In this document: positions 10,467 through 42,719 of the stretch, piece by piece | Layout of the letters: each line of letters starts with the position of its first letter | How positions within the stretch are numbered: position 1 is the stretch's first letter | NCBI GenBank assembly: GCA_900457075.1 | Contig: UGYN01000002.1 | Location: forward strand, 372,001 to 436,000 | From: Serratia quinivorans | Lineage (GTDB): Bacteria > Pseudomonadota > Gammaproteobacteria > Enterobacterales > Enterobacteriaceae | DNA length: 64,000 nucleotides | Reading direction: 5' to 3' | Position numbers and translations under genes: made by a program | Notes under the pieces: model-generated | The model's database searches: none | The model's input: only the letters and a program-made list of their open reading frames with translations | Told to the model about the DNA's origin: nothing

Positions 10467-10555
10467 CTTGTTGAACTTAATATCTTCCGCAATGATTCAG
10501 CGTAAACGCTTCATCATGGTTGTATTAAGTTCTCTTTACGTTATTCCCTGTTTAT

Positions 10556-10765
10556 TTACAGAGCAACAACGTTGGCGGCAGCCGGCCCGCGCGGGCTGTC
10601 TTCTACGGTGTACTCAACACGCTGGCCTTCAGCCAAAGTTTTGAAACCGTCGGTCGCGATTGCGGAGAAGTGTACGAATACATCTTTACCACCGTCGTTC
10701 TGTTCAATAAAACCAAAACCTTTGCTTTCATTGAACCACTTCACTTGACCCGTTTTCTTAGACAT
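10556..10765 (-). CDS. Cold-shock protein, CspA family
   Basis: This 69-residue single-domain cold-shock protein is an RNA chaperone of the CspA/CspE type. RNP1 (KGFGFI, residues 15-20) and RNP2 (VFVHF, 29-33) are intact. The C terminus [10 protein letters not shown] is typical. The 5' region (10766-11290) holds no other gene on this strand and could give the long leader common in this family. I did not find a convincing copy of the cold box. The paralogue group (CspE, CspC or CspD) cannot be assigned by eye. Confidence 0.93.
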
Positions 10766-11290
10766 TACTTATTTACCTTTTAAATATATACAAAACCTGC
10801 CATAAGGCAATTTTGGCCGTTCTTGGAAACATTACTTATGGGAGGTACTTAGAAGGTTCGTCTTTGAAGCGGAATCAGATGATAACGTTTTTGGAGGAAC
10901 TGCTTAATTCTAAACTCGAACATAAATAGGTCTGCATCACAGGCCGACTTGCATTTACTCATAAATCTGTCTTTTGCACAAGAGGTTTATTGCCATGTTT
11001 TTACCATTTCGCCACATTTACTTTTATATCCATGATTGCTAATGAATTAATTTATCTTTTTTTACGTAAACCTCTTAGCGGCATTGCCTTCTGGATGGCC
11101 GTATTTTCCGTTATTCGCTGTTCAAATGAGAGCTAACGCATAAAAATCTAATATGCTTGGCCTGGCTATAACAAAACCTAATCGACCTAGCTAAACTTGA
11201 GGTGAAAACAAGGCGAATGGCCTCTCAACCAGCACGTTTGCCGCCAAGAATGATATTTTTCAGATAATACTGAATAAAGGAGCTATGCGC
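10766..11290. other. 525-bp divergent intergenic region between csp and ydcJ
   Basis: This AT-rich stretch has no ORF worth calling. It must hold the promoter and leader of the csp gene on the minus strand and the promoter of ydcJ on the plus strand. The ydcJ side ends in AAAGGAGCT, a good ribosome-binding site placed 8 bp before the ATG at 11291. No clear operator, terminator or small RNA could be recognised. Confidence 0.6.
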
Positions 11291-31665: not shown

Positions 31666-32812
31666 TCAGGCGGCAGCCAGCGGGGTGTGTTGCGGGTCCG
31701 GCTTTTTCAGCAGCATCATCAGATAGACCAGGGCTACTGCGGCGATCATCACAAACAGCGATTGGTCGGAATAATTTTGCATCAGCAGCGCCGTCATCGA
31801 CGGGCCGAGCAGGCTGCCGATGGTGTAACTCATCAACAATGCCTGATTCATCGCCACCAGCTCATGAGGCATCGCTTTCTCACAGGCCCAGGACATCGCG
31901 ACCGGGTACAGGGTAAACCCGGCACAGCCGAGAATGAATAGCGCCGGTGCCATGGCAGAGTGGCTGAGCATCGCCACGCTGGCGAGGATCACCACGAATA
32001 CCTGAATACGCAGCACCAGCAGGCGCCCATAGCGATCAGCCAGGCGCCCTACCGGCCACTGGCCGACAATGCCTGAACTGACCAGTAATGCCATCCAGTA
32101 ACCGACGTTGGCGTCGCTCATCCCCTGATGGGATAAATACAGCGGCATCAGGCCATACAACGAGCCGAGAACAATACCGGAGATAATACAACCATTTGAT
32201 GCCCAACCGCGCACTGCGGCGTTTCAGCATCGGCCAAACCGCGGCGTGCTGAGGTTCATCGTGCTGGCTGTTAACCCGGGCAAACAACATCGGCAACATG
32301 GCGCTGATCACAATGGCCGTCACCCAGGGCACCACGTTCAACAATTCGGTAGACACCATACTCAGCAGCAGTTGGCCGACCACCGTTCCCAGGTAGTAAA
32401 CCATCATATAGGCCGCCAGCAGTTGGCCACGGTTGGTAAGGTTTCCGCTGCGCAATAAGGCGCTCTCAACAATCACCCAAATCCAGGCGCAGCCGATACC
32501 GGCAAAGAAACGCCAGCCCATCCAACTCCAGAAATCGAGCGACAACGCCATACCGGCGGTCGCCACGGCGAACACCACGCAGGCAAGGTGATAACTGCGG
32601 GTAAACCCAATGCGCTGGATCAGTTTGCCCGCCATCAGCGTGCCAAACAGATTGCCGGTAAAGTAAGAGGAACTTACCATTCCCACCTGCCCGGTTGACA
32701 ACTGAGCATGGGTTAACCAAAGAGGAACTAACGTATTCAATACGGCAATAGAAACCGTGAGCAACAACAGGCCACAGAGCAGCAGGAGCACTGGCCGGGA
32801 ATATGCGGACAT
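31666..32812 (-). CDS. ycaD: YcaD, major facilitator superfamily transporter, with an apparent one-base insertion
   Basis: This is an MFS permease of the YcaD group with unknown substrate. The first frame from the ATG at 32812 ([20 protein letters not shown]) covers six membrane helices and stays family-like to about RRSARLGI. The second frame continues [21 protein letters not shown] and covers the remaining helices. An extra T in the run at 32195-32197 causes the break; removing it gives a 381-residue protein, the usual length. Either a sequencing error or a recent inactivation is possible. It is convergent with pflA and borders the C-nucleoside-type cluster. Confidence 0.9.
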
Positions 32813-33027
32813 AGTGAGATTGAAACCGAACGCGCAATGAGAGTGCGCGCATCATGCCACTGGCGATAAAAAAGTCAATCAGCTCTTATCAGTGGATCGC
32901 ACGATTTGTTTTTTGTCACCCTAGTGCAGGGTAACATCATCAGGAAAGTGCCCCCCAATGACCGCTTAAGGCATGCGCCAATCGGGTTCCGGCGTGGCCC
33001 CTTCCCTGAGGGCAACGCCGGCTTTTC

Positions 33028-33954
33028 TTAGCGCGACCGGTGATAAACCATAGCTAACTGACCCGCAATTTCGGCGGTGTTCACCAATACTGCCGCATTG
33101 GCCATGGCCGAACGCCCATGGGTCGCCTGCTCAACCGCTTTCATAATGAATTTGGTTACCTGGCTGCCAGTTACGCCTTCGGCGGCCGCATTCTCGATGG
33201 CGGCCTGGATCGCTGCCTGAACGTCACGGCTGTCAATCGCATCCTCCGGTTTGGTCGGTGCTGCCACCACCATCGCCGCACTGCCCGGCAATGCGCGGTT
33301 AATATCAATCGCCTGAGCAATCGCCTCCAGGCTGTCCAACCGTTGCGGACTGCGATAGCCGCTACTGCGACAATAGAATGCCGGGAAATCGTCCGTCTGA
33401 TAGGTCACCACGGGAACGCACTGGGTTTCCAGAAACTCCAGCGTACGCCCGATATCGAGGATATTTTTGGCTCCTGCACACACCACCGTCACGTTAGTGC
33501 GGGTAAATTGGATCAAATCGGAAGAGATATCCATGCTGTCTTCTCCCCCGCGATGCACACCACCAATGCCCGCAGAGGCAAAGAAACCAATACCGGCCAG
33601 TTCGGCCAACATCAGCGACGAAGCCACCGTGGTGGCTCCCATGCTTTTTTGCGCCAGCACAAAAGGCAAATTGTTGCTGGATACTTTCGCAATGCCAGGC
33701 GTGGTGGCGAAACGTTCGATCTGTTCGCGATGCATGCCCACCAAAATTTCGCCATCGCAGATACCAATGGTCGCAGGAACCGCGCCGCTGCGGCGGACTG
33801 CCGCCTCCACCGCCAGCGCAGTCTCCACATTGGCAGGATAGTTCAGCCCGTGAGTAATGACGTTTGACTCCAGCGCAACCACCGCGTGGCGACTTTCCAG
33901 GGCGGCCTTCACTTCAGGATGAATAACCAAAGGCAGTAAATTAGCTTGCATCAT
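33028..33954 (-). CDS. indA: Pseudouridine-5'-phosphate glycosidase-like C-glycosynthase (IndA/PsuG family)
   Basis: PsuG-family enzymes make or break the C-C bond between ribose 5-phosphate and a pyrimidine-like ring. The 308-residue protein keeps the catalytic set: Glu29 in ALESNVITHG, Asp142 in GEDSMDISSD and the Schiff-base Lys163 in CAGAKNILDIG. Its ATG overlaps the NRPS stop by 4 bp, so the two are co-translated. Partner genes in indigoidine and minimycin clusters encode this same family. The inferred role here is to attach ribose 5-phosphate to the NRPS-made aminopyridine-dione. A plain pseudouridine catabolic enzyme is less likely, because no pseudouridine kinase gene (psuK) adjoins it. 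Confidence 0.9.
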   Translation of the reverse strand: MMQANLLPLVIHPEVKAALESRHAVVALESNVITHGLNYPANVETALAVEAAVRRSGAVPATIGICDGEILVGMHREQIERFATTPGIAKVSSNNLPFVLAQKSMGATTVASSLMLAELAGIGFFASAGIGGVHRGGEDSMDISSDLIQFTRTNVTVVCAGAKNILDIGRTLEFLETQCVPVVTYQTDDFPAFYCRSSGYRSPQRLDSLEAIAQAIDINRALPGSAAMVVAAPTKPEDAIDSRDVQAAIQAAIENAAAEGVTGSQVTKFIMKAVEQATHGRSAMANAAVLVNTAEIAGQLAMVYHRSR

Positions 33955-36900
33955 GACTCACTTATCACATTAACGGAAACAGAGGGAAACAGGGCCGCTT
34001 GCAGTTGCGCGACACCTTCAGGCAGCAGCAGTTGGTAATGGTCCACCGCCAGCGAGATCACCCGCGGCGGATTGGCCTGCAGGGCCGGTGAATTTTCAAG
34101 TTGGGAATAATGGTCACCGGCCGCTTTAATAACGGTCACCGGCGCCCGAACCTGGCGTTGCTGCAGTTCCTCGAAGTTATAGCCGAAGGCATAGGTTTGC
34201 TTGACGATCTCAATGATCCGCGCCACCAGTTCCACCTGAAGCTGTGGGAAACAGCGGCAAATAAAACGCACAAAGTCCCCCTCTTCACGGCACTCTGCCA
34301 GACAGCGTTCAAGCAATGGCCCTTCCACCTGGCGGGCAAAAACGGAAAATAAAATCGCCACAAACACCGGATTGGTGAAGCTGACCTGCTGGTTACCCTC
34401 TTGCTCTCGGTCAAATTGCGTTTTCGGCGAACCGGGAGCAATCAGGTACAGCTCCTCCACCATCTGCCCCTCGGCCTCCAACTGGTAGGCAGCCTCGAAA
34501 GCCACGCGTGCGCCGAAGGAGTATCCCCACAACGTATAGGGCCCCTGGGGTTGCAAGCGTCGGATTTGCGCGATATCTGCCGCCGCCATCTGCTGAATGG
34601 ACTCCAGTGGCAGCTCCCCTTCGTTAATGCCCAGCGCCTGCACGCCATAAAAGGCACGCGCCTGGCTCAGACTCTCTCCCAGCGCTTTGAGACTTAGCGG
34701 ATAGCCTCCCAGACCTGGCCAGCAAAAAATCGCCGGTGCCTGCTGTCGATTAAAGGGCACCAAGCGCGACAGCTGTGGCGCGAGATAGGCATTGCGTTCT
34801 ATCCAGTCGGCCAAAGCAACGATGTTCGGCGTTTGGAACAGGATCTGCATCGGCAATTTAATATCGAGCGCTTTGTTGACCTGGTTGATAAACATGACTG
34901 CAGTGAGTGAGTTACCCCCGCTCTCAAAGAAATCATCGTCCGCAGAGACCCTTTCCCACTTCATGACCCGGCACCAGATTTCGGCCAAACGCTGTTGTAA
35001 TTCGCCCTCCGGCACCACGATTGGCTTTTCGGTATTCAGTTGGCAAGCATACATACGATTAAGCGTTTGTTGGTCGACCTTACCGTTGGCCATCAGCGGC
35101 AGCTTGTCCATGACCAGCACGCGGTTCGGGATCATGTATTGTGGCAACTGCGCGGCTAAATCGGCTTTCAGCATTTCAGTTGGCCCTTGCATATGCACCC
35201 GATCCTCATCCATGCCGTCATGGCACAGCTGCGACTGGCTGAGCGGGCCGCCGATACAGAAATAACAGCTCTGCATCGGCAACCCGTGGCGGGTCAATAG
35301 CGTCCGCATCGCCTTTGCAGCAGGCAAGTCGTGCCCGCTTTTCGAACTATAGCCGGCCGACATCATCCCCAGCCCCAGCGGATTGGCTTGCAGACGATGC
35401 AGCGCACGCCCCAGCATAATGTAATGCCCCTGAGCATCGGCATGGTTGTTCACCAGCATGATGCCAAAACCCGCACGCTGATAGACTTGCTGGTTGATAG
35501 CGATAACGTGATGACGTGCCAGGATCTCCTCATCCATAAAATGCAGCGAGCCCTGGCGATAGTGGTACAGCCCAGGAGACATATCGGCGACGCCCTGCGC
35601 ATGAACCTGGACAAAAAATTCCGGGTGGTCGACAACGGCCTCCATATTGGCGGGCTGAATGCGAAAATCGCCGAAATAATAGTCAGTTGCGGCTCCGTCA
35701 TACCACTGTGGCAACGCCCCCGGCTGGGCGCCGGAGGCTGCCTGCAGACCATATTCTGGCAGCAGTTCATCGAACAGCCCCAACATATGACCGGCCTCCA
35801 TCTCCAGAACCTCCTGAATATTGTTCTGATAAACCTGATCGATAGCCGCGCGTTTGCCGATAAAGTGGATTTCAAGGCTGCCCGTTGCCTGTTCAGGCAG
35901 TTCGCATACGCAATACAGGCGGTGGTTTACAGGGTGGTAATAGTAGATCCCCGCCGGCCAGCCAAACATTCGGTGTAGCTCGAGATACATCTGAACCGAA
36001 TACAGCGCCCCCGGTGATGCGTAGGCGTATTTGGGCAACAATCGTTTTTCACTGGCGAACTGGCCAAAGTTACGCAGCAGCGCGCCAAAATCCTCCACCG
36101 ACAGCGCTTGCAGGTCGCTCGCCAACATGGCACGCGGGCTGCGCCCCAGAATTGACAATAATTGCGCCTCGGTAACCCGCGTCGTCCCTTCAAAGAAACG
36201 GTAACTTTTGCGGCTGAAAGCCCGATAGTTTTGCTGCGCCGTAGCCTGTGCGCCGGCAAGCGCGATTGCGGGCAATGCCCGGCACTCGTCCTCGCTGCGG
36301 CACCCCGCATTGGACAGCTGCGCCTTGACCTGTTGCCTGCTGGCCTTCGACTGATGATGCTCGCCGTGGACCCCCTGATCCATCAACGCCGCATGCTGTG
36401 AGTCCAACTCGACGCAGGCGATCAGGTTTTGATAATGCGTTCGCTCGTCTTCATTGACCATTACCGCCGCCCTTTTCACCCAGAGGTGTCGCTCAATCGC
36501 CAGGCGAATTTCATCGAGTTCGATACGGTAACCGCGCAGTTTAATCTGGTTATCTGCCCGGCCGGCAAAGTGATAGCAGCCGAGGCTATCCCGGTAAACC
36601 ACATCGCCAGTGCGATACATGCGCGCATGTTCCGCGGCAGGGGTAAATGGATTCGTCAGAAACCGTTCAGCCGTTAACTCAGGACGCAGCAAATAGCCAT
36701 TGGCCACCTGCACACCGGAGATGTACAGCTCGCCTTTTTCACCCTCGGCCACCGGCTGACGGTGCGCATCAAGCACATAAAACGCGGTATCCTCCACCGG
36801 CCGACCTATCGAAACGGCGTCAGGTGACTGTTCCAGAGCCTCTTTCTCAACCTCATGCACCGACGCATTGATGGTACATTCCGTTGGGCCATACAGGTTG

Positions 36901-37787
36901 ATCAGGCGAGCTTGCGGCAGGCACTGAAAGAATTGCTTTGCCAGGTTGCGCGTCAATATTTCGCCACCGCAAAAGACCTGCGTTAACGCCTGGCAATCCT
37001 GCAACAGTGGCTGCTCGACCAGCGCTTGCAGCAGCGTCGGTACGCATTGCAGGCTGGTGATTTGATGACGCAGCAAGGTCGCCACCATCATATCCGGATC
37101 GCGGTAGCAATCCTTCGGTGCTATCACCAGCGAACATCCCATCGCCGGCGCCAGGATCTCCCACTGCGCCGCATCAAAGCTCATGGGCGTTTTCTGCAAA
37201 ATCTTACTCTGTGCGCCAAAAGCAAAACGGTGGGACAGGTAATGCATATGACGAGAAATATTAGGGTAACTGACCATTACGCCTTTCGGTTTGCCCGAAC
37301 TGCCTGAGGTGTAAATCACATAAGCCAGCCGCGCGGCATCGGAAGAATCAGCAATGTCAAAAACCGCTTTGGGCAAATCAGAAAGATAAGGGATATCATT
37401 GTCGGTAATAATCGTGACATCTGGCCCGATCAGCGTTTGCAATTTTTCTTTGAGATGATATTGGCAAAGAATAACTTTTACCTCTGAGTCGGTAATCATA
37501 TAACGCAACCGCTCATCGGGATATTCTGGCGCCAACGGCAAATAAGCATAACCGCTGGCCAAAATACCCCAGGCACCGCTTACCAGAGTAGTGGAAGGCT
37601 CGCAGAATAAACCGATACAGACTCTGTCAGTGTTAATCCACTGCCGCAAACAGGAGGAAATACTAAAAACATGATGGCAGAAGTCGCGATAACTCAGTAC
37701 GCTGTCCGCGTCTTGTACCGCAATGGCTTCGGGTTGCTGGCTGTAGTGTTGAGCCAACTGTTCAAATAGTCCCGCCGAAATATCCAT
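33951..37787 (-). CDS. indC: Indigoidine-synthase-type nonribosomal peptide synthetase (A-Ox-T-TE)
   Basis: This 1,278-residue single-module NRPS has the IndC/BpsA architecture. The adenylation domain has A3 YTSGSSGKPKG (159-169), A5 NLYGPTE (297-303), A7 YRTGD (391-395) and A8 near 409-427. An FMN-oxidase insertion fills about 505-855, before the A10 motif LPLMANGKVD (896-905). The carrier serine is Ser960 in DDFFESGGNS, and the thioesterase has GYSFG with Ser1090. In known cases the enzyme activates L-glutamine, cyclises and oxidises it, giving the precursor of blue indigoidine. It needs a phosphopantetheinyl transferase, which is not encoded here. The neighbours suggest the product is diverted to a C-nucleoside. 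The start at 37787 has a weak ribosome-binding site. Confidence 0.95.
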   Translation of the reverse strand: MDISAGLFEQLAQHYSQQPEAIAVQDADSVLSYRDFCHHVFSISSCLRQWINTDRVCIGLFCEPSTTLVSGAWGILASGYAYLPLAPEYPDERLRYMITDSEVKVILCQYHLKEKLQTLIGPDVTIITDNDIPYLSDLPKAVFDIADSSDAARLAYVIYTSGSSGKPKGVMVSYPNISRHMHYLSHRFAFGAQSKILQKTPMSFDAAQWEILAPAMGCSLVIAPKDCYRDPDMMVATLLRHQITSLQCVPTLLQALVEQPLLQDCQALTQVFCGGEILTRNLAKQFFQCLPQARLINLYGPTECTINASVHEVEKEALEQSPDAVSIGRPVEDTAFYVLDAHRQPVAEGEKGELYISGVQVANGYLLRPELTAERFLTNPFTPAAEHARMYRTGDVVYRDSLGCYHFAGRADNQIKLRGYRIELDEIRLAIERHLWVKRAAVMVNEDERTHYQNLIACVELDSQHAALMDQGVHGEHHQSKASRQQVKAQLSNAGCRSEDECRALPAIALAGAQATAQQNYRAFSRKSYRFFEGTTRVTEAQLLSILGRSPRAMLASDLQALSVEDFGALLRNFGQFASEKRLLPKYAYASPGALYSVQMYLELHRMFGWPAGIYYYHPVNHRLYCVCELPEQATGSLEIHFIGKRAAIDQVYQNNIQEVLEMEAGHMLGLFDELLPEYGLQAASGAQPGALPQWYDGAATDYYFGDFRIQPANMEAVVDHPEFFVQVHAQGVADMSPGLYHYRQGSLHFMDEEILARHHVIAINQQVYQRAGFGIMLVNNHADAQGHYIMLGRALHRLQANPLGLGMMSAGYSSKSGHDLPAAKAMRTLLTRHGLPMQSCYFCIGGPLSQSQLCHDGMDEDRVHMQGPTEMLKADLAAQLPQYMIPNRVLVMDKLPLMANGKVDQQTLNRMYACQLNTEKPIVVPEGELQQRLAEIWCRVMKWERVSADDDFFESGGNSLTAVMFINQVNKALDIKLPMQILFQTPNIVALADWIERNAYLAPQLSRLVPFNRQQAPAIFCWPGLGGYPLSLKALGESLSQARAFYGVQALGINEGELPLESIQQMAAADIAQIRRLQPQGPYTLWGYSFGARVAFEAAYQLEAEGQMVEELYLIAPGSPKTQFDREQEGNQQVSFTNPVFVAILFSVFARQVEGPLLERCLAECREEGDFVRFICRCFPQLQVELVARIIEIVKQTYAFGYNFEELQQRQVRAPVTVIKAAGDHYSQLENSPALQANPPRVISLAVDHYQLLLPEGVAQLQAALFPSVSVNVISES

Positions 37788-38170
37788 TTTTACTCTATGA
37801 ACGCCTCACATTTGCCAGGATCCCGGTAGGGTTGTAATGACGACATGCTTTAGCAACACTCCCCATTCAGGGAAAATGCCGGCCTTATACAATTAGGGGA
37901 TATCTGTCGTTGTCATTACTGTCGTTATCCATGCAGCTTTTCGGCATTCACCCTCTTTCAGAGTTAATCGTTGCCAGTTGGCAGATGACAACTGACGTCA
38001 TTTTTTTCGCAGGCATGAGCCTGAGCGACTTTTGCCCATATCCTTTGGATCTATTTATTTGTCATGGCGCTAATGGCGTAAGCATGGCGATATTTATCGC
38101 CCGTAAACCTTCACCATTAAGAAATAGCGCTGTCTGCGGCCCTGAATAACCCGTATTTCTTTTGCTGTTG
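37788..38170 (-). promoter_or_regulatory. 383-bp gap upstream of indC; probable internal promoter/operator region
   Basis: This is the only large gap inside the cluster. It contains an inverted repeat, GTAATGACGACA at 37834-37845 facing TGTCGTTGTCATTAC at 37905-37919. Between the arms the minus strand has a -10-like TATAAG. A 79-codon plus-strand frame (37910-38149) looks non-coding. I infer a regulated promoter for indC-indA, separate from the operon promoter upstream; the regulator is not in the window. Confidence 0.45.
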
Positions 38171-38866
38171 CTAGCCTGCTGCTGCGCGACTAACGTCTCT
38201 GTGACGGCACCAGTCAACCACGGCGGCAAAAGAGCTTACAATAATGCTGGGCTCGGCTGCGGCCAGTACCTGACGATTTTGAATACCATAATCCACCGCG
38301 ATCACCTGACAGCCAACCTGATGAGCCATCAATATGTCGTGCGTAGTATCCCCCACCATCACCGCATCGATCGCCCTGACCTGATAGTGATCCAGGATTT
38401 TGTTGCCAGACTCCGGCGCCGGTTTTTTCTCCGTTACCTGGTCAGCGCAAACCACCACATCAAACAACGGGGCAATGCCCGCCGCCGCCAATAGCGAATT
38501 TGCACTGCGTGCGAACTTATTGGTGGTCACCGCCAGATGAAAACCCGCTCCTTTCAACTGTTGCAGGCCCGCAGCGACGCCAGGAAATAACAGCGATGCC
38601 GCCATGGGTAAAATCAGCGTCTGAAACTGCCGTTGATACTCCGCCACGCAGTCGGTTACTGTCCGGCTATCGGCCTCCTGAGACAGCAATTGGGCAAAGG
38701 CACGCTCCAACGGCAGGCCTATCGTTTCACGAATCAGCTCATCCTCGGCCGGCTGTGGTAATTGCAGTTGTTGAAAGGTGGCACGAAAGGCGGACACAAT
38801 AGCTCTCGCCGTATCAAACAGGGTGCCGTCAAGGTCAAACATAATGACTCTGAGTTCAGATTTCAT
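38171..38866 (-). CDS. HAD-superfamily phosphatase (IndB / MinC N-domain-like)
   Basis: This 231-residue HAD hydrolase resembles phosphoglycolate-phosphatase-type enzymes. Motif I is MFDLDGTLFDT near residues 9-19, motif II a Thr in AVTTNKFAR, and the motif III-IV region reads KKPAPE...VMVGDTTHDILMA. I use the ATG at 38866 because GAAGG sits 8 bp upstream; a GTG at 38875 is possible. In indigoidine and minimycin clusters a HAD phosphatase accompanies the PsuG-like enzyme. It is thought to dephosphorylate the C-nucleoside 5'-phosphate, completing the product and limiting its toxic phosphorylated form. Here it is a free protein, not fused to the glycosidase. Confidence 0.88.
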   Translation of the reverse strand: MKSELRVIMFDLDGTLFDTARAIVSAFRATFQQLQLPQPAEDELIRETIGLPLERAFAQLLSQEADSRTVTDCVAEYQRQFQTLILPMAASLLFPGVAAGLQQLKGAGFHLAVTTNKFARSANSLLAAAGIAPLFDVVVCADQVTEKKPAPESGNKILDHYQVRAIDAVMVGDTTHDILMAHQVGCQVIAVDYGIQNRQVLAAAEPSIIVSSFAAVVDWCRHRDVSRAAAG

Positions 38867-38886
38867 AGATGTCACCTTCTTGAGGG

Positions 38887-39111
38887 TCAGTAATTAGGGA
38901 CTTTAATTAAACAGTCTTTTTTATTTTCTATTTCCGGGCGATAAACCTGCGCCTGCCAGTCATCGGCAGATACCGGCTCTATTGCAATGGAGACGACGCC
39001 GGCATCGCACTGTAATGCTTGCGTAATAGCCCGCGTTATCTCCTCTGCCAGTGCATTCTTGGCAGTTTGGGAAAGTACCTGCGGAAAGTGCTGAATTTTC
39101 ACGTGCGGCAT
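38887..39111 (-). CDS. 4-oxalocrotonate tautomerase-like protein (PptA-type)
   Basis: This 74-residue protein has the tautomerase fold signature with the catalytic N-terminal proline directly after Met (MPHVKIQHFP). It is near PptA/YdcE in length and layout. It lies 24 bp after the uracil-phosphoribosyltransferase-like gene and 20 bp before the HAD gene, on the same strand. I know of no tautomerase in the published minimycin or indigoidine clusters. It might act on keto-enol forms of the pyridine-dione intermediate; this is inference from position only. Confidence 0.82.
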   Translation of the reverse strand: MPHVKIQHFPQVLSQTAKNALAEEITRAITQALQCDAGVVSIAIEPVSADDWQAQVYRPEIENKKDCLIKVPNY

Positions 39112-39135
39112 GTCTTTTTCCTTTGTAGAGTTTAA

Positions 39136-39786
39136 TTACCCGTGCCGGGTACCAAAATATCGGTCACCAAAGTCGCCGATCCCCGGTTTCATAAAGGCCT
39201 GATCCGAGAGTCCCTGTTCAATGGATGAGGTCACCAGTTGGATGTCAGGGAAACGGGCAAACAAACGTTCGACCCCCACCGGCGATGCCAATACATTAAC
39301 AACATAGATATTTTCCAGCGGCACGCCTTGCTCCAACAGAGTTTCGATTGCCATGATCAGCGAACCGCCCGTGGCCAGCATAGGTTCAAATAACAACACG
39401 GCGCGTTCGGCAATATCGTCGGGGAAATGTGAGTAGAAGTATTTGGGTAGCTTGCTTTGCGGATTGCGTTGAATAAGTATTTTTCCTATCGGCTGGCCGC
39501 TAAACATTCTGCGATACTCGCCCTCAAAACTTTCCCCGGCACGGATAACCGAAACACCGCAAATACCACGGGCAAGTTTTAGCCCCGCATAGGTTTCGCC
39601 AATGGGGGTAATCACCTCATTTTTTTCATACGGCAGTAAGGAGGCGACCTGCACCAGCAGTTGGCGCAGCAGTTGATCGCTATAATATTCAAAACAGGCA
39701 TGCTCCGCCTGTTTATTACGGATTTGGGTGTGCAAATAAGTAAGATAATGACTTGGGGCTAACAGATGAATATTAGAAAGTTTCAT
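39136..39786 (-). CDS. Uracil phosphoribosyltransferase-like protein (cluster-associated)
   Basis: UPRT makes UMP from uracil and PRPP. This 216-residue protein carries the PRPP-binding loop FEPMLATGGS (about residues 133-142), with Glu where housekeeping UPRTs usually have Asp. The uracil-binding C terminus GIGDFGDRYFGTR is also present. It is a diverged paralogue, not the usual upp, and is embedded in the cluster. In the Streptomyces minimycin pathway a UPRT (MinD) is reported to serve self-resistance by boosting the UMP pool against the C-nucleoside. The same role is inferred here. The ATG at 39786 follows a 127-bp structured leader. Confidence 0.88.
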   Translation of the reverse strand: MKLSNIHLLAPSHYLTYLHTQIRNKQAEHACFEYYSDQLLRQLLVQVASLLPYEKNEVITPIGETYAGLKLARGICGVSVIRAGESFEGEYRRMFSGQPIGKILIQRNPQSKLPKYFYSHFPDDIAERAVLLFEPMLATGGSLIMAIETLLEQGVPLENIYVVNVLASPVGVERLFARFPDIQLVTSSIEQGLSDQAFMKPGIGDFGDRYFGTRHG

Positions 39787-39817
39787 AACCTTGTTCTTTT
39801 AACAGAGTAATAGATGC

Positions 39818-39860
39818 ATAAGCACCGCCCTTCACCGGGTTAGGTGAAAGGAAGGCTTAT
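39818..39860 (-). other. Nested inverted repeat in the leader of the UPRT-like gene
   Basis: An outer 6-bp repeat (ATAAGC / GCTTAT) encloses an inner 9-bp stem (39828-39836 with 39843-39851, one G-T pair) with a 6-nt loop. It lies in the 127-bp gap between the Nudix and UPRT-like genes. No T run follows, so it is not a typical terminator. It may be an mRNA processing or stabilising hairpin. Confidence 0.45.
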
Positions 39861-39913
39861 ATCGATTAAAAATAAAAGTCAGTCTGTAACTTATCAATAT
39901 CAACAGGGAATAA

Positions 39914-40330
39914 TCAGTCGATAAGATGCCTTTCCTTTAGCTCGCTCAATACTTTTACCGCCGCTTCGGAACAGAGATGGCAGTCCGCATGGGTCAACCA
40001 GGAAACTTCTTCTATTTCGGCACTGGCTTTGACTTCACCAATAAAGTCGGCAGTAAAACAATGTATTTTCACCATCACGTCAGCGGGTTTACCATCGGCC
40101 TGCCCATGGAATTCGCCCAATGAAATAATACTGTCATTAATTAAATCAACGGAAAGTTCTTCTTTAATTTCTCGGGTAAGAGCCTCGCGATCGCTCTCTC
40201 CGATTTCCCGTTTGCCGCCAGGAATATAAAACGTCGTCTTGTTATACGAACGAGCCATCAGGACTTTTTTATCCTGAATATATACCCAGCCTAATTTATC
40301 AATAAATTTTGTAGCAGGACGGTTATTCAC
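39914..40330 (-). CDS. Nudix hydrolase (cluster-associated)
   Basis: Nudix enzymes cleave nucleoside di- and triphosphates and similar pyrophosphates. The 138-residue protein has an intact Nudix box: Gly39, five residues, Glu45, seven residues, then REIKEEL (53-59). The start is a GTG at 40330 with GAGAGG 8 bp upstream. It lies 12 bp after the DUF4243 gene, so it belongs to the operon. Minimycin-type clusters I know of lack it. It could remove toxic C-nucleoside triphosphate or a pathway pyrophosphate. The sequence shows the fold but not the substrate. Confidence 0.88.
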   Translation of the reverse strand: MNNRPATKFIDKLGWVYIQDKKVLMARSYNKTTFYIPGGKREIGESDREALTREIKEELSVDLINDSIISLGEFHGQADGKPADVMVKIHCFTADFIGEVKASAEIEEVSWLTHADCHLCSEAAVKVLSELKERHLID

Positions 40331-40342
40331 TCTGTTGACCTC

Positions 40343-41524
40343 TCACTCCAGGTTAGGTGCATGCTCAAACGACGGCGGCAATTGGGGAGTTGTGGTGAAC
40401 TGGTGTGCGGTGGCGCGGTACAAGGTGCATTTGGTGCGCAACCATAGCAGTTTCATCACATAAACCAGTTTTGGGTTATGCTCCTCTTCCTCCTCCACGG
40501 CTCGCGCGGTGAGCTGCTGCCACTCGCGTTCCCATAGCGGATCGCGGATATCGTCATATTCATCGGCATAAAGATGCTGGAGAGATTGTAACTTATCGGG
40601 GTGAGCCAAACTATCGGTAGCAAACAACATGCACTGCATCCCGACCCAGTAGCTGCAAAGCACGTCGCGCGCCTCTTGCTCGGGTAAATGCCTGGCGATT
40701 TGTTCCATGGCCAACAAAGACGTCAACAAGTGCAGCAGCAGAAAATTCCCCGGTGTGGTCAGGTAGATTAATGTGACCGTCTGATAGAATTGCACCCACA
40801 CCTGCTCGAGGCTCTGTTGCGTCAGCCACTCCGGCTGGCGATAAATCTCTTCATGGCCCTGTTCCAATACGCAGGCGATGCGATATTGCAGACCGGAACG
40901 CTGTAATTCAGGATGGATACGCGCCTTGATTTCCTCAGCCGGCGTTTCAATAACCGCGCTCTGCCAGGCCAGCATCTCTTCCCGCCGTTGCTGCCAGCAG
41001 TTCGCCAAACGTAGCACAGAGTCAAAGACCCTTGGCTCCCCAAGACGTGGGTCGTATTGGGAGCGTCGATGATGGCAGGGTACGTACGAATAGGCCATAT
41101 AGGCCAAGCCTTCGACGATCATCACCTCATGCTCGGCCAGCAACGCCCAACCCAGATGAATGGTGCCGTGCGTCAACGAGCCCACCCAACCGTCAATCAG
41201 TTCCGGCAGATAGCTGGCAAGCACCTGCTCACGTCCCTGCTCACGTATCTGCTGCCGGAAAAAGTCGCAATAGGCGCTAAAGCTGCTTCGTTTGCCCCGC
41301 AGGCTACGCCAGTTAGCACTATCAATCTGGTACCTGGCTTTTCTTGGTGGCTCCAACCCCATGCCGTAAGGCGTCATGGCGGCATAGCGCCGGTAATACC
41401 AGGCGATACGCTCCTCGGGCACGCCCAACCCAGACAAGGCGATAACGGCATGTTTAACATGATTGGTGAGATGCCCGTTAAACTCTATGTCGTATCGCTG
41501 ATCATCTAACAGTTCATTTATCAT
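40343..41524 (-). CDS. DUF4243 / questin-oxidase-like oxygenase
   Basis: This 393-residue protein is recognisable as DUF4243 (questin oxidase-like), a family of ring-opening or ring-remodelling oxygenases. His-rich motifs suited to metal binding are present: HLTNHVKHA (His18, 22, 25), LTHGTIHLGWA (His119, 123) and CHHRRS (151-152). As I recall the minimycin/oxazinomycin literature, a protein of this family converts the ribosylated pyridine-dione to the 1,3-oxazine-dione. Its presence separates a C-nucleoside cluster from a pigment cluster. The ATG at 41524 overlaps the end of the upstream DMT gene by 11 bp, implying translational coupling. Confidence 0.85.
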   Translation of the reverse strand: MINELLDDQRYDIEFNGHLTNHVKHAVIALSGLGVPEERIAWYYRRYAAMTPYGMGLEPPRKARYQIDSANWRSLRGKRSSFSAYCDFFRQQIREQGREQVLASYLPELIDGWVGSLTHGTIHLGWALLAEHEVMIVEGLAYMAYSYVPCHHRRSQYDPRLGEPRVFDSVLRLANCWQQRREEMLAWQSAVIETPAEEIKARIHPELQRSGLQYRIACVLEQGHEEIYRQPEWLTQQSLEQVWVQFYQTVTLIYLTTPGNFLLLHLLTSLLAMEQIARHLPEQEARDVLCSYWVGMQCMLFATDSLAHPDKLQSLQHLYADEYDDIRDPLWEREWQQLTARAVEEEEEHNPKLVYVMKLLWLRTKCTLYRATAHQFTTTPQLPPSFEHAPNLE

Positions 41525-41957
41525 GATGATATTTCTCGAGTGTCGATAGGATGATCCCAATGGTGATCAATGCCACTCCCAATAGCTGAATGAGATGACT
41601 GCGCCCACCTTGATTAATCACATCAAACAGCACGGCCGAGAACATCTGACCGCCAATAATTAATACCGAAGTATTTAGCGCCCCCATTTTGGGGAACACG
41701 TAGCTGCTGGTTGCCACGAACAGTGCGCCACACCCGCCACCAACCCAGGCATAGGCCGGAACTTGAGCCCAATGGAACTGCCCTAGCTGTTGCCAGTAAA
41801 ACGCCGCCACCAACAGGGTCAGAAATAAGAACCCCACCGAGTGATTCCATAAGGAGGTGCGAAATGCGCCAATAGAGGCACTCAGCTGGCCATTAATAAC
41901 CCTGGCAGAGCTAATAATCATCCCGTTTAACAGGGCAATAAAAATAAGCGTATCCAC
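41514..41957 (-). CDS. DMT-superfamily half-transporter (DUF606/YdcZ-like), second of a pair
   Basis: This 147-residue protein has about five hydrophobic helices and the layout of the DUF606 (YdcZ) group of drug/metabolite transporters. That group is built from four- to five-helix halves. Its start is 11 bp after the stop of a similar gene, and its end overlaps the DUF4243 gene. Two adjacent half-transporters usually form a heterodimer. Position at the head of the operon suggests export of the cluster product. It is sequence-unrelated to any named exporter I can identify. Confidence 0.85.
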   Translation of the reverse strand: MDTLIFIALLNGMIISSARVINGQLSASIGAFRTSLWNHSVGFLFLTLLVAAFYWQQLGQFHWAQVPAYAWVGGGCGALFVATSSYVFPKMGALNTSVLIIGGQMFSAVLFDVINQGGRSHLIQLLGVALITIGIILSTLEKYHHDK

Positions 41958-41968
41958 GTCATCGCTCC

Positions 41969-42427
41969 CTAAAGGCTATAGATAATAAGAAAACAGCCGG
42001 AAATAATCAGAGCAGAGATATAAAGGCTACTGCGAGTCATTTTTCGTTTTTGTGAGCCGAATAAACCAAAGTGATCTGAGACAAACCCGAATAATAATTG
42101 CCCAACCAGGCCAAGAGAAATTGTGCTGGAGAGAGGAATGCCACCGTTAATTGCCATCGTAGCCAAAATGACGGTAAAGGCTCCGGGAATGCCGCCAAGG
42201 TAGAGCCACCAGGATCGTTTCTGTGGTTTATTATTCGATTCCTGAGGATTTTTTTTAACAAATAATAGAATAAGCAGCAATGAACTCAACATGCCAATAC
42301 CGTGAGCCACCCAAGAGGCGACGACAGAAGAGGTTTGTTCAGACAGAGCGCTGTTGGCTTGAAACATTAAGGTAAGAAAAAAACCGCTAAGTATAGCGAT
42401 AAAAATATTTTTAAAATTGCCTATCAT
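41969..42427 (-). CDS. DMT-superfamily half-transporter (DUF606/YdcZ-like), first of a pair
   Basis: This 152-residue protein starts MIGNFKNIFIAILSGFFLTLMF and has about five membrane segments. Internal GIPGAFTVILATMAINGGIPLSS and ISLGLVGQLLFGFVSDHFG stretches are typical of DUF606. The start is uncertain: the ATG at 42427 begins the conserved part, while an upstream ATG or TTG (to 42487) would add an unconserved leader. None has a good ribosome-binding site. It is the first gene of the cluster and is AT-rich compared with the flanking housekeeping genes. Confidence 0.8.
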   Translation of the reverse strand: MIGNFKNIFIAILSGFFLTLMFQANSALSEQTSSVVASWVAHGIGMLSSLLLILLFVKKNPQESNNKPQKRSWWLYLGGIPGAFTVILATMAINGGIPLSSTISLGLVGQLLFGFVSDHFGLFGSQKRKMTRSSLYISALIISGCFLIIYSL

Positions 42428-42535
42428 AATGTGTAACCCGCGCATTAAAAAAACCACTAAGGTGATTTTACAATCCTTGTACAGCAAAGCCTAAGAACGA
42501 TGCCAAGAAGCTTTTACTCATATAATCCGCAAAAA

Positions 42536-42687: not shown

Positions 42688-42719
42688 AGGAACGGCCGCC
42701 AGCTTTGGCGGCCGTTCCT
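42688..42719 (-). terminator. Strong hairpin after dmsD
   Basis: A perfect 14-bp inverted repeat (AGGAACGGCCGCCA / TGGCGGCCGTTCCT) with a GCTT loop lies a few bases beyond the dmsD stop. The minus strand then reads GGTTTACC, so the T run is poor. It probably ends the dms transcript and marks the left junction of the conserved backbone with the cluster. Confidence 0.6.

What the first reader, a model, noticed from the sequence alone, without database searches (positions are those of the whole stretch)
33028..42427. A minimycin/oxazinomycin-type C-nucleoside cluster in a Serratia-like genome
Nine genes on one strand combine an IndC-type A-Ox-T-TE NRPS, a PsuG-like C-glycosynthase, a HAD phosphatase, a UPRT-like protein, a DUF4243 oxygenase, a Nudix hydrolase, a tautomerase and a DMT exporter pair. 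NRPS, PsuG-like and HAD genes alone would suggest indigoidine pigment. The UPRT-like and DUF4243 genes are the extra parts I recall from the Streptomyces minimycin (C-nucleoside antibiotic) pathway, where the NRPS is the branch point to indigoidine. The likely product is a ribosylated oxazine-dione or related C-nucleoside, with blue pigment as a possible shunt. The functional assignment is inference; the gene content is seen directly.
Basis: partly seen in the sequence, partly recalled or inferred. Interest (0 to 1): 0.92.

Follow-up and report, generated by a model that had tools for sequence, protein, structure and literature searches.

The report
Minimycin-type antibiotic gene cluster in Serratia
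A few Serratia strains carry a compact, well-maintained set of nine genes that matches, enzyme for enzyme, the Streptomyces recipe for the nucleoside antibiotic minimycin (oxazinomycin), so this is a known kind of antibiotic pathway in a little-noticed host, with one extra gene that may protect the producer.

Summary
In detail: nine intact genes on the minus strand, 33028-42487, in a Serratia chromosome. Each part of the Streptomyces minimycin (oxazinomycin) cluster has a counterpart: an A-Ox-T-TE NRPS with a glutamine-type code, a tautomerase (free here, fused to the NRPS in Streptomyces), a PsuG-like C-glycosynthase, a HAD phosphatase and a DUF4243 enzyme (separate here, fused as MinC there), a UPRT distinct from the strain's own Upp, and an exporter. 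The six enzymes occur together in S. hygroscopicus at 46-63% identity. Seven IndC-type loci from other Enterobacterales lack DUF4243, which sets this apart from a plain indigoidine cluster. The block is a 9.8-kb insertion found in 3 of 30 genomes of the genus, with empty sites in 6; all nine genes are under purifying selection. The freshest point is a Nudix gene, fused in one relative to a second HAD phosphatase, which suggests clearance of the toxic triphosphate. No product has been measured.

The parts
41969..42487 (-). DMT_YdcZ-family exporter subunit 1 (start possibly at 42427); in the place of the MFS transporter beside the Streptomyces cluster
   Evidence: Pfam DMT_YdcZ 2.5e-27; paired with the second copy beside DUF4243 also in Photobacterium L011 and Zooshikella L012
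41514..41957 (-). DMT_YdcZ-family exporter subunit 2
   Evidence: Pfam 3.1e-26; dN/dS 0.13 and 0.00 against two relatives
40343..41560 (-). DUF4243 / questin-oxidase-like enzyme (likely ATG start at 41524); counterpart of the C-terminal half of MinC, inferred non-heme iron oxygenase that recasts the ring
39914..40330 (-). Nudix hydrolase, extra to the Streptomyces cluster; inferred minimycin-triphosphate cleansing
   Evidence: Pfam 3.3e-11; Nudix box at residue 39, with S for the usual late G; also in the clusters of L009, L010, L011, L019; fused to HAD in L019
39136..39786 (-). MinD-like uracil phosphoribosyltransferase, inferred self-resistance
   Evidence: Pfam 1.4e-63; PRPP-loop and C-terminal motifs present; tree with cluster-borne UPRTs, apart from Upp
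38887..39111 (-). 4-OT-type tautomerase, free counterpart of the MinA Tau domain; Pro follows the start Met
   Evidence: Pfam Tautomerase 4.7e-5; 46% identical to the NRPS-fused domain in L014
38171..38875 (-). HAD phosphatase, counterpart of the N-terminal half of MinC
   Evidence: Pfam HAD_2 1.5e-41; 52% identical to the HAD half in L014
33951..37787 (-). A-Ox-T-TE NRPS (IndC/MinA type), A-domain code DAWQFGLINK
   Evidence: Pfam; code identical in 16 of 20 other loci, one change in the other 4; T-domain GGNSL, TE GYSFG
33028..33954 (-). PsuG-like C-glycosynthase (MinB/IndA type); start overlaps the NRPS stop
   Evidence: Pfam Indigoidine_A 6.3e-110; 63% to L014, 46% to E. coli PsuG; only PF04227 match in the genome
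32913..42705 (.). insertion that carries the cluster; the flanks lie close together in relatives without it
   Evidence: empty sites in L026-L031

Best explanation
This is a complete minimycin (oxazinomycin)-type C-nucleoside antibiotic cluster, probably acquired as one block by a sub-group of Serratia. Proposed working: the NRPS loads L-glutamine, oxidises it on the carrier domain and releases it as a cyclic intermediate; the free tautomerase shifts this to the form that the PsuG-like enzyme joins by a carbon-carbon bond to ribose 5-phosphate; the DUF4243 enzyme oxidatively recasts the ring to the 1,3-oxazine-2,4-dione; the HAD enzyme removes the 5'-phosphate; and the DMT pair exports the nucleoside. 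The UPRT protects the cell by enlarging the UMP pool, and the Nudix enzyme probably destroys minimycin triphosphate made from re-entered drug. Untrapped NRPS product could dimerise to blue indigoidine. Shown here: gene content, homology, motifs, fold class of the DUF4243 protein, selection and insertion. Taken from a review on Streptomyces: the reaction order and the UPRT role. Inferred: the exporter and Nudix roles, and that minimycin itself is the product.
For: S. hygroscopicus ATCC 21589 (L014) holds NRPS 48%, Tau 46%, PsuG 63%, HAD 52%, DUF4243 49%, UPRT 50% in one 7.7-kb stretch, with NRPS-Tau in one frame and HAD-DUF4243 fused, which is the MinA/MinC layout described in PMC8724604 (passages). 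Among 11 loci found through DUF4243, NRPS, Tau and HAD occur in 11 of 11, PsuG and UPRT in 10 of 11 each (L011 is cut inside its NRPS, L019 has no UPRT match). Of 120 listed DUF4243 relatives, 12 are fused to HAD and 2 to UPRT. A-domain code identical to L014 (that the code means Gln is recalled). UPRT tree 100/100 apart from Upp. DUF4243 fold matches questin oxidase BTG13, AflY and PaD. dN/dS 0.00-0.19 in 18 of 18 gene comparisons.
Against: No product, expression or phenotype is known. The published reference cluster (MK122964) was not compared directly; L014 is another S. hygroscopicus strain and is taken as its stand-in. The PsuG tree does not put the window protein with the Streptomyces ones: its next kin are Erwinia/Pantoea proteins (97/94) whose gene neighbourhoods I did not see. 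In the UPRT tree the window group's next kin after Photobacterium is the UPRT of L050, a locus without DUF4243, and the nearest solved UPRTs score far better than the bacterial Upp structures, a class not sampled in that tree. DUF4243 also occurs without PsuG, HAD and UPRT matches in S. clavuligerus, so the enzyme alone does not prove this product. No regulator was recognised in the block, and promoter-like sites do not exceed chance (11 found, 10.9 expected).
Confidence: 0.8

Rival explanations
1. A related C-nucleoside other than minimycin: same NRPS, tautomerase and C-glycosylation steps, but the DUF4243 enzyme stops at, or makes, another ring (for example a hydroxylated dioxopyridine riboside).
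For: DUF4243 is 49% identical to the Streptomyces enzyme, enough to allow a change of outcome; side branches exist, such as S. clavuligerus L021 with a PLP enzyme and no PsuG or HAD match and locus L050 with PsuG and UPRT, PRAI-like and flavin-oxidoreductase genes and no DUF4243.
Against: The full set of min parts is present, and candidate metal-site residues are invariant in 35 of 35 rows including Streptomyces ones.
Confidence: 0.13
2. An indigoidine pigment cluster; the extra genes are unrelated neighbours.
For: NRPS of IndC type with the same code as control loci; PsuG-like and tautomerase genes also occur beside IndC-type NRPSs in Enterobacterales (2 of 7 and 6 of 7 loci); the PsuG tree does not single out min clusters.
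Against: 0 of 7 such loci have DUF4243, HAD, Nudix or DMT matches, 1 of 7 has the UPRT (L048 and L051 are short contig pieces); the extra genes are conserved with the set from Streptomyces to Photobacterium and under selection.
Confidence: 0.05
3. A decayed or silent relic of a horizontally acquired cluster.
For: Sporadic: 3 of 30 genus genomes, 1 of 394 in the order; the neighbouring ycaD-like gene is split in the window.
Against: All nine frames open and dN/dS 0.00-0.19.
Confidence: 0.02

Closest known systems
Streptomyces hygroscopicus minimycin (min) / oxazinomycin (ozm) cluster
   Same: NRPS A-Ox-T-TE, tautomerase, C-glycosynthase, HAD phosphatase, DUF4243 enzyme and UPRT, 46-63% identity to S. 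hygroscopicus ATCC 21589
   Different: Tau and HAD/DUF4243 are separate genes here (fused there); DMT_YdcZ pair here, MFS gene beside L014; a Nudix gene is added; gene order differs
Minimycin-like clusters of Gammaproteobacteria: Photobacterium galatheae L011, Zooshikella L012, uncultured gamma L019; single proteins of Xenorhabdus poinarii, Pectobacterium aroidearum, Photorhabdus
   Same: DMT pair in L011 and L012; Nudix in L011 and L019; DUF4243 72-78% identical in Pectobacterium and Xenorhabdus
   Different: no Nudix match in Zooshikella; L019 has no UPRT match and has MATE and MFS genes; L011 has a MarR gene
Bacterial indigoidine (ind) loci
   Same: IndC-type NRPS with the same or a one-residue-different code, sometimes PsuG-like and tautomerase genes
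   Different: no DUF4243, HAD or Nudix match in 7 of 7 Enterobacterales loci examined; UPRT in 1 of 7
Questin oxidase family (BTG13, AflY, PaD)
   Different: 17% identity; BTG13 and AflY are fungal enzymes, with other substrates

Membership tests
minimycin/oxazinomycin (min) cluster | Gln-type A-Ox-T-TE NRPS (MinA) | tested here: met
   Pfam domains, code DAWQFGLINK same as L014, carrier and TE motifs. Pfam returned no model for the Ox stretch; it is judged from alignment to MinA/IndC-type proteins
minimycin/oxazinomycin (min) cluster | tautomerase domain or gene | tested here: met
   74-aa gene, 46% to the fused domain of L014, Pro after Met
minimycin/oxazinomycin (min) cluster | PsuG/YeiN-like C-glycosynthase (MinB) | tested here: met
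   63% to L014; apart from E. coli PsuG, a long branch, but not grouped with the Streptomyces proteins; the Lys of CAGAKNILD aligns with E. coli PsuG
minimycin/oxazinomycin (min) cluster | HAD phosphatase plus DUF4243 (MinC) | tested here: met
   both present as separate genes, 52% and 49% to the fused protein of L014
minimycin/oxazinomycin (min) cluster | dedicated UPRT (MinD) distinct from housekeeping Upp | tested here: met
   second UPRT in the genome; tree, which held no other non-Upp UPRTs
minimycin/oxazinomycin (min) cluster | transporter (MinT) | tested here: met
   a transporter pair is present but of another family, DMT_YdcZ against MFS beside L014
minimycin/oxazinomycin (min) cluster | production of minimycin | not testable with these tools
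   needs LC-MS
indigoidine-only (ind) cluster | IndC without DUF4243 | tested here: not met
   DUF4243 present here; absent in 7 of 7 control loci
questin-oxidase-like non-heme iron enzymes | overall fold | tested here: met
questin-oxidase-like non-heme iron enzymes | His/carboxylated-Lys iron site | tested here: inconclusive
   His and Lys positions invariant and Lys364 falls on BTG13 Lys377 in a very weak stretch of the alignment; the ligand set of BTG13 is recalled, no metal modelled

The most novel reading that the evidence does not exclude
The cluster carries a second tier of self-protection that the Streptomyces pathway lacks: a dedicated Nudix pyrophosphatase that cuts minimycin triphosphate, the form incorporated by RNA polymerase, back to the monophosphate, which the HAD phosphatase then turns into exportable minimycin. 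The Nudix-HAD fusion in a related cluster would be the same two steps in one protein.
Probability: 0.4. Interest if true: 0.58.

Novelty: new member of a known kind. Interest (0 to 1): 0.42.

Why it matters
It puts a complete, selected C-nucleoside antibiotic pathway in fast-growing enterobacteria, with single-domain versions of enzymes that are fused in Streptomyces. It may help explain the old report of oxazinomycin from a Gram-negative bacterium (Pseudomonas paucimobilis, cited in PMC6821320, passages). It also gives a simple gene-content rule, DUF4243 beside an IndC-type NRPS, PsuG-like and HAD genes, for telling min clusters from pigment clusters; by that rule some clusters published as indigoidine, such as that of Cystobacter ferrugineus, may be min-type (inference).

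Tried and rejected
Rejected: that the UPRT is a stray housekeeping Upp copy; that DUF4243 belongs to an unrelated housekeeping family; that the cluster is shared with plasmids or E. coli: no near match to the 9.5-kb cluster in 72,556 plasmid or 20,395 E. coli records; by protein, 71 plasmid records match DUF4243, all under 60% identity: 4 Streptomyces over most of its length and 67 Rhizobium (20 of 71 rows seen). No tRNA in the window. Repeats: at least 60 direct families, 20 shown; one 21-base pair at 86% (31910, 42678) spans the block but its left copy lies in the ycaD-like gene, so no insertion-site repeat was recognised. Led nowhere: regulatory RNA (one Rfam hit in the window, cspA, far away), promoters and terminators (no more than shuffles), base composition (37-43 kb is 45-52% G+C, NRPS and PsuG 56-58%, flanks about 54-55%). 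Wider samples found only the window's own genome: 1 of 394 in the order, 1 of 369 in the class, 1 of 398 in the phylum, so no further Gram-negative clusters came from there. Papers: Kong 2019 (10.1016/j.isci.2019.11.037) is not held; a search needing two of 'BTG13', 'carboxylated lysine', 'questin oxidase' returned none; so both enzymes' papers are known only through citations or recall. Whether Serratia min clusters are in print: 'Serratia'+'minimycin' (1 paper, a quorum-sensing review, listing only), 'Serratia'+'indigoidine'+'blue pigment' (23 papers, 20 listed, none opened), 'minimycin' (31 papers, 29 listed) and 'oxazinomycin' (15 papers, 11 listed) named none in a title or the shown start of an abstract; most of those papers were not opened.
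Full report
What is in the window. Nine genes lie on the minus strand between 33028 and 42487. In the order of transcription they are two DMT_YdcZ exporter genes, a DUF4243 (questin-oxidase-like) gene, a Nudix gene, a UPRT gene, a 4-OT-type tautomerase gene, a HAD phosphatase gene, then, after a gap of 383 bases, an NRPS gene and a PsuG-like gene whose start overlaps the NRPS stop. Pfam assigns all nine; the tautomerase only just passes its cut-off, and the oxidase stretch of the NRPS has no Pfam model. All frames are open and the usual motifs are present: A3 core, carrier serine motif, thioesterase motif, HAD DxDGT, the UPRT PRPP loop and C-terminal motif, a Nudix box with S in place of the late G, and the PsuG lysine motif.

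Where it is. The genome belongs to Serratia: the two other cluster-bearing genomes of the genus coincide in contig length and position with records titled S. quinivorans and S. proteamaculans. Of 30 genomes of the genus, 3 (own included) carry the full DUF4243 gene; two more, with small genomes, show only a short weak stretch. In six genomes (L026-L031) the DNA matches the window up to 32912-32913 and again from 42706 (42719 in one), with 53 to 513 unmatched bases between, while the two carriers match without a break in that stretch. So about 9.8 kb entered, or was lost, as one block between a ycaD-like and a dms-like locus. Two further relatives (L034, L035) match on the ycaD side only. The cluster is rare more widely: 1 of 394 (order), 1 of 369 (class) and 1 of 398 (phylum), each time the own genome (these samples overlap).

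What it matches. A scan of one genome per species with the DUF4243 protein returned 11 loci: two Serratia, Photobacterium galatheae, Zooshikella, six Streptomyces and an uncultured gammaproteobacterium. NRPS, tautomerase and HAD relatives lie beside DUF4243 in 11 of 11, PsuG-like in 10, UPRT in 10, the DMT pair in 4 and Nudix in 4. In S. hygroscopicus ATCC 21589 (L014) the tautomerase is the tail of the NRPS frame and HAD and DUF4243 form one 626-residue frame. This is the MinA and MinC layout in the review PMC8724604 (passages read), which also gives MinB as the C-glycosynthase, MinD as UPRT and MinT as transporter. I take L014 as a stand-in for the published cluster of strain JCM 4712, which I could not compare directly. 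Among 120 listed DUF4243 relatives, 12 are fused to HAD and 2 to UPRT, which ties the parts together independently (404 proteins passed, 120 shown).

Control against plain indigoidine. The oxidase stretch of the NRPS was sought in 394 Enterobacterales genomes: 8 match, own included. None of the other seven has DUF4243 in the loci I fetched, with the same number of genomes drawn the same way, found DUF4243 in the own genome only. In the seven loci, two of them short contig pieces, tautomerase is found in 6, PsuG-like in 2, UPRT in 1, and HAD, DUF4243, Nudix and DMT in none. The A-domain code DAWQFGLINK is identical in 16 of 20 other loci and differs by one residue in the other four, so the NRPS itself does not tell the two kinds apart; DUF4243 does. 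The UPRT is not confined to min clusters, which weakens it as a sole marker.

Selection. Against S. quinivorans and S. proteamaculans, dN/dS is 0.00-0.19 for all nine genes (18 comparisons); the Nudix gene has the highest dN. The cluster is kept, not decaying.

How it likely works. Steps given for Streptomyces in the review: glutamine activation and oxidation by the NRPS, release and tautomerisation, C-glycosylation, DUF4243-dependent ring change, dephosphorylation, and protection by phosphatase, UPRT and transporter. I carry these over by homology. The DMT pair as exporter is inference from family and position. The Nudix role is inference: its NCBIfam matches are all far below their cut-offs, and a pyrimidine nucleoside triphosphate diphosphatase model (2e-7) is among the best two, with MutT-type and other models behind; [quoted passage not shown] and in L019 a homologous Nudix domain is fused to a second HAD domain beside the other genes. 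Against it: close Nudix relatives exist under the names S. rubidaea and Edwardsiella tarda, names not seen among the 120 listed DUF4243 relatives (many rows unnamed), and Zooshikella and the six Streptomyces loci show no Nudix match.

Novelty. Minimycin-like clusters are in print as predictions for Photorhabdus khanii (antiSMASH table, PMC12542766, passage), Photorhabdus africana and relatives (PMC11194217, passage), Burkholderia gladioli (antiSMASH, 80%, PMC12702040, passages) and an Enterobacteriaceae bin at 60% similarity (PMC12215834, passage). I found no paper naming one in Serratia (searches; most hits not opened). So this is a new member of a known kind, with a variant layout. The preprint PMC12224551 (passages) treats clusters of Cystobacter and Melittangium as indigoidine; DUF4243 and PsuG-like proteins named Cystobacter ferrugineus have the same longest-contig length in the protein listings (P0051, P0216), so that one may be min-type. 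That is inference from a contig length, not a map.

Noticed in passing
window 31666-32812, minus strand: The ycaD-like MFS gene is split into two overlapping frames here (258 and 182 aa), while 25 relatives have an open frame of 394-407 aa over the first part; a frameshift or an assembly error beside the insertion.
   Followed up: partly
L019 6864-8048: A Nudix domain fused to a HAD phosphatase domain inside a minimycin-like cluster of an uncultured gammaproteobacterium that has no UPRT match but MATE and MFS genes.
   Followed up: partly
L021 5282-13227 (S. clavuligerus pSCL4): An NRPS-tautomerase frame and a DUF4243 gene with an EamA exporter and a PLP-dependent (PALP) enzyme, without PsuG, HAD or UPRT matches: perhaps an amino-acid conjugate of the same ring system instead of a riboside.
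   Followed up: partly
L050 2498-12919 (unnamed Enterobacterales genome G358): IndC-type NRPS and PsuG-like genes with a MinD-like UPRT (54%), a PRAI-family protein, an Oxidored_FMN protein and, judged by eye only, GST-, EamA- and MarR-like genes, no DUF4243: possibly another C-nucleoside pathway.
   Followed up: partly
P0061, P0079: Proteins in which DUF4243 is followed by a UPRT domain in one chain.
   Followed up: partly
P0011: A DUF4243 protein of this clade (53% identical) listed under Vibrio cholerae; the genes around it were not examined.
   Followed up: no
window 10490-10948, minus strand: cspA thermoregulator RNA (Rfam RF01766, 127.7 bits), an ordinary cold-shock leader.
   Followed up: no
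window 42688-42719: Perfect inverted repeat with 14-base arms that straddles the right edge of the insertion, just downstream of the dms-like operon; possibly its terminator.
   Followed up: no
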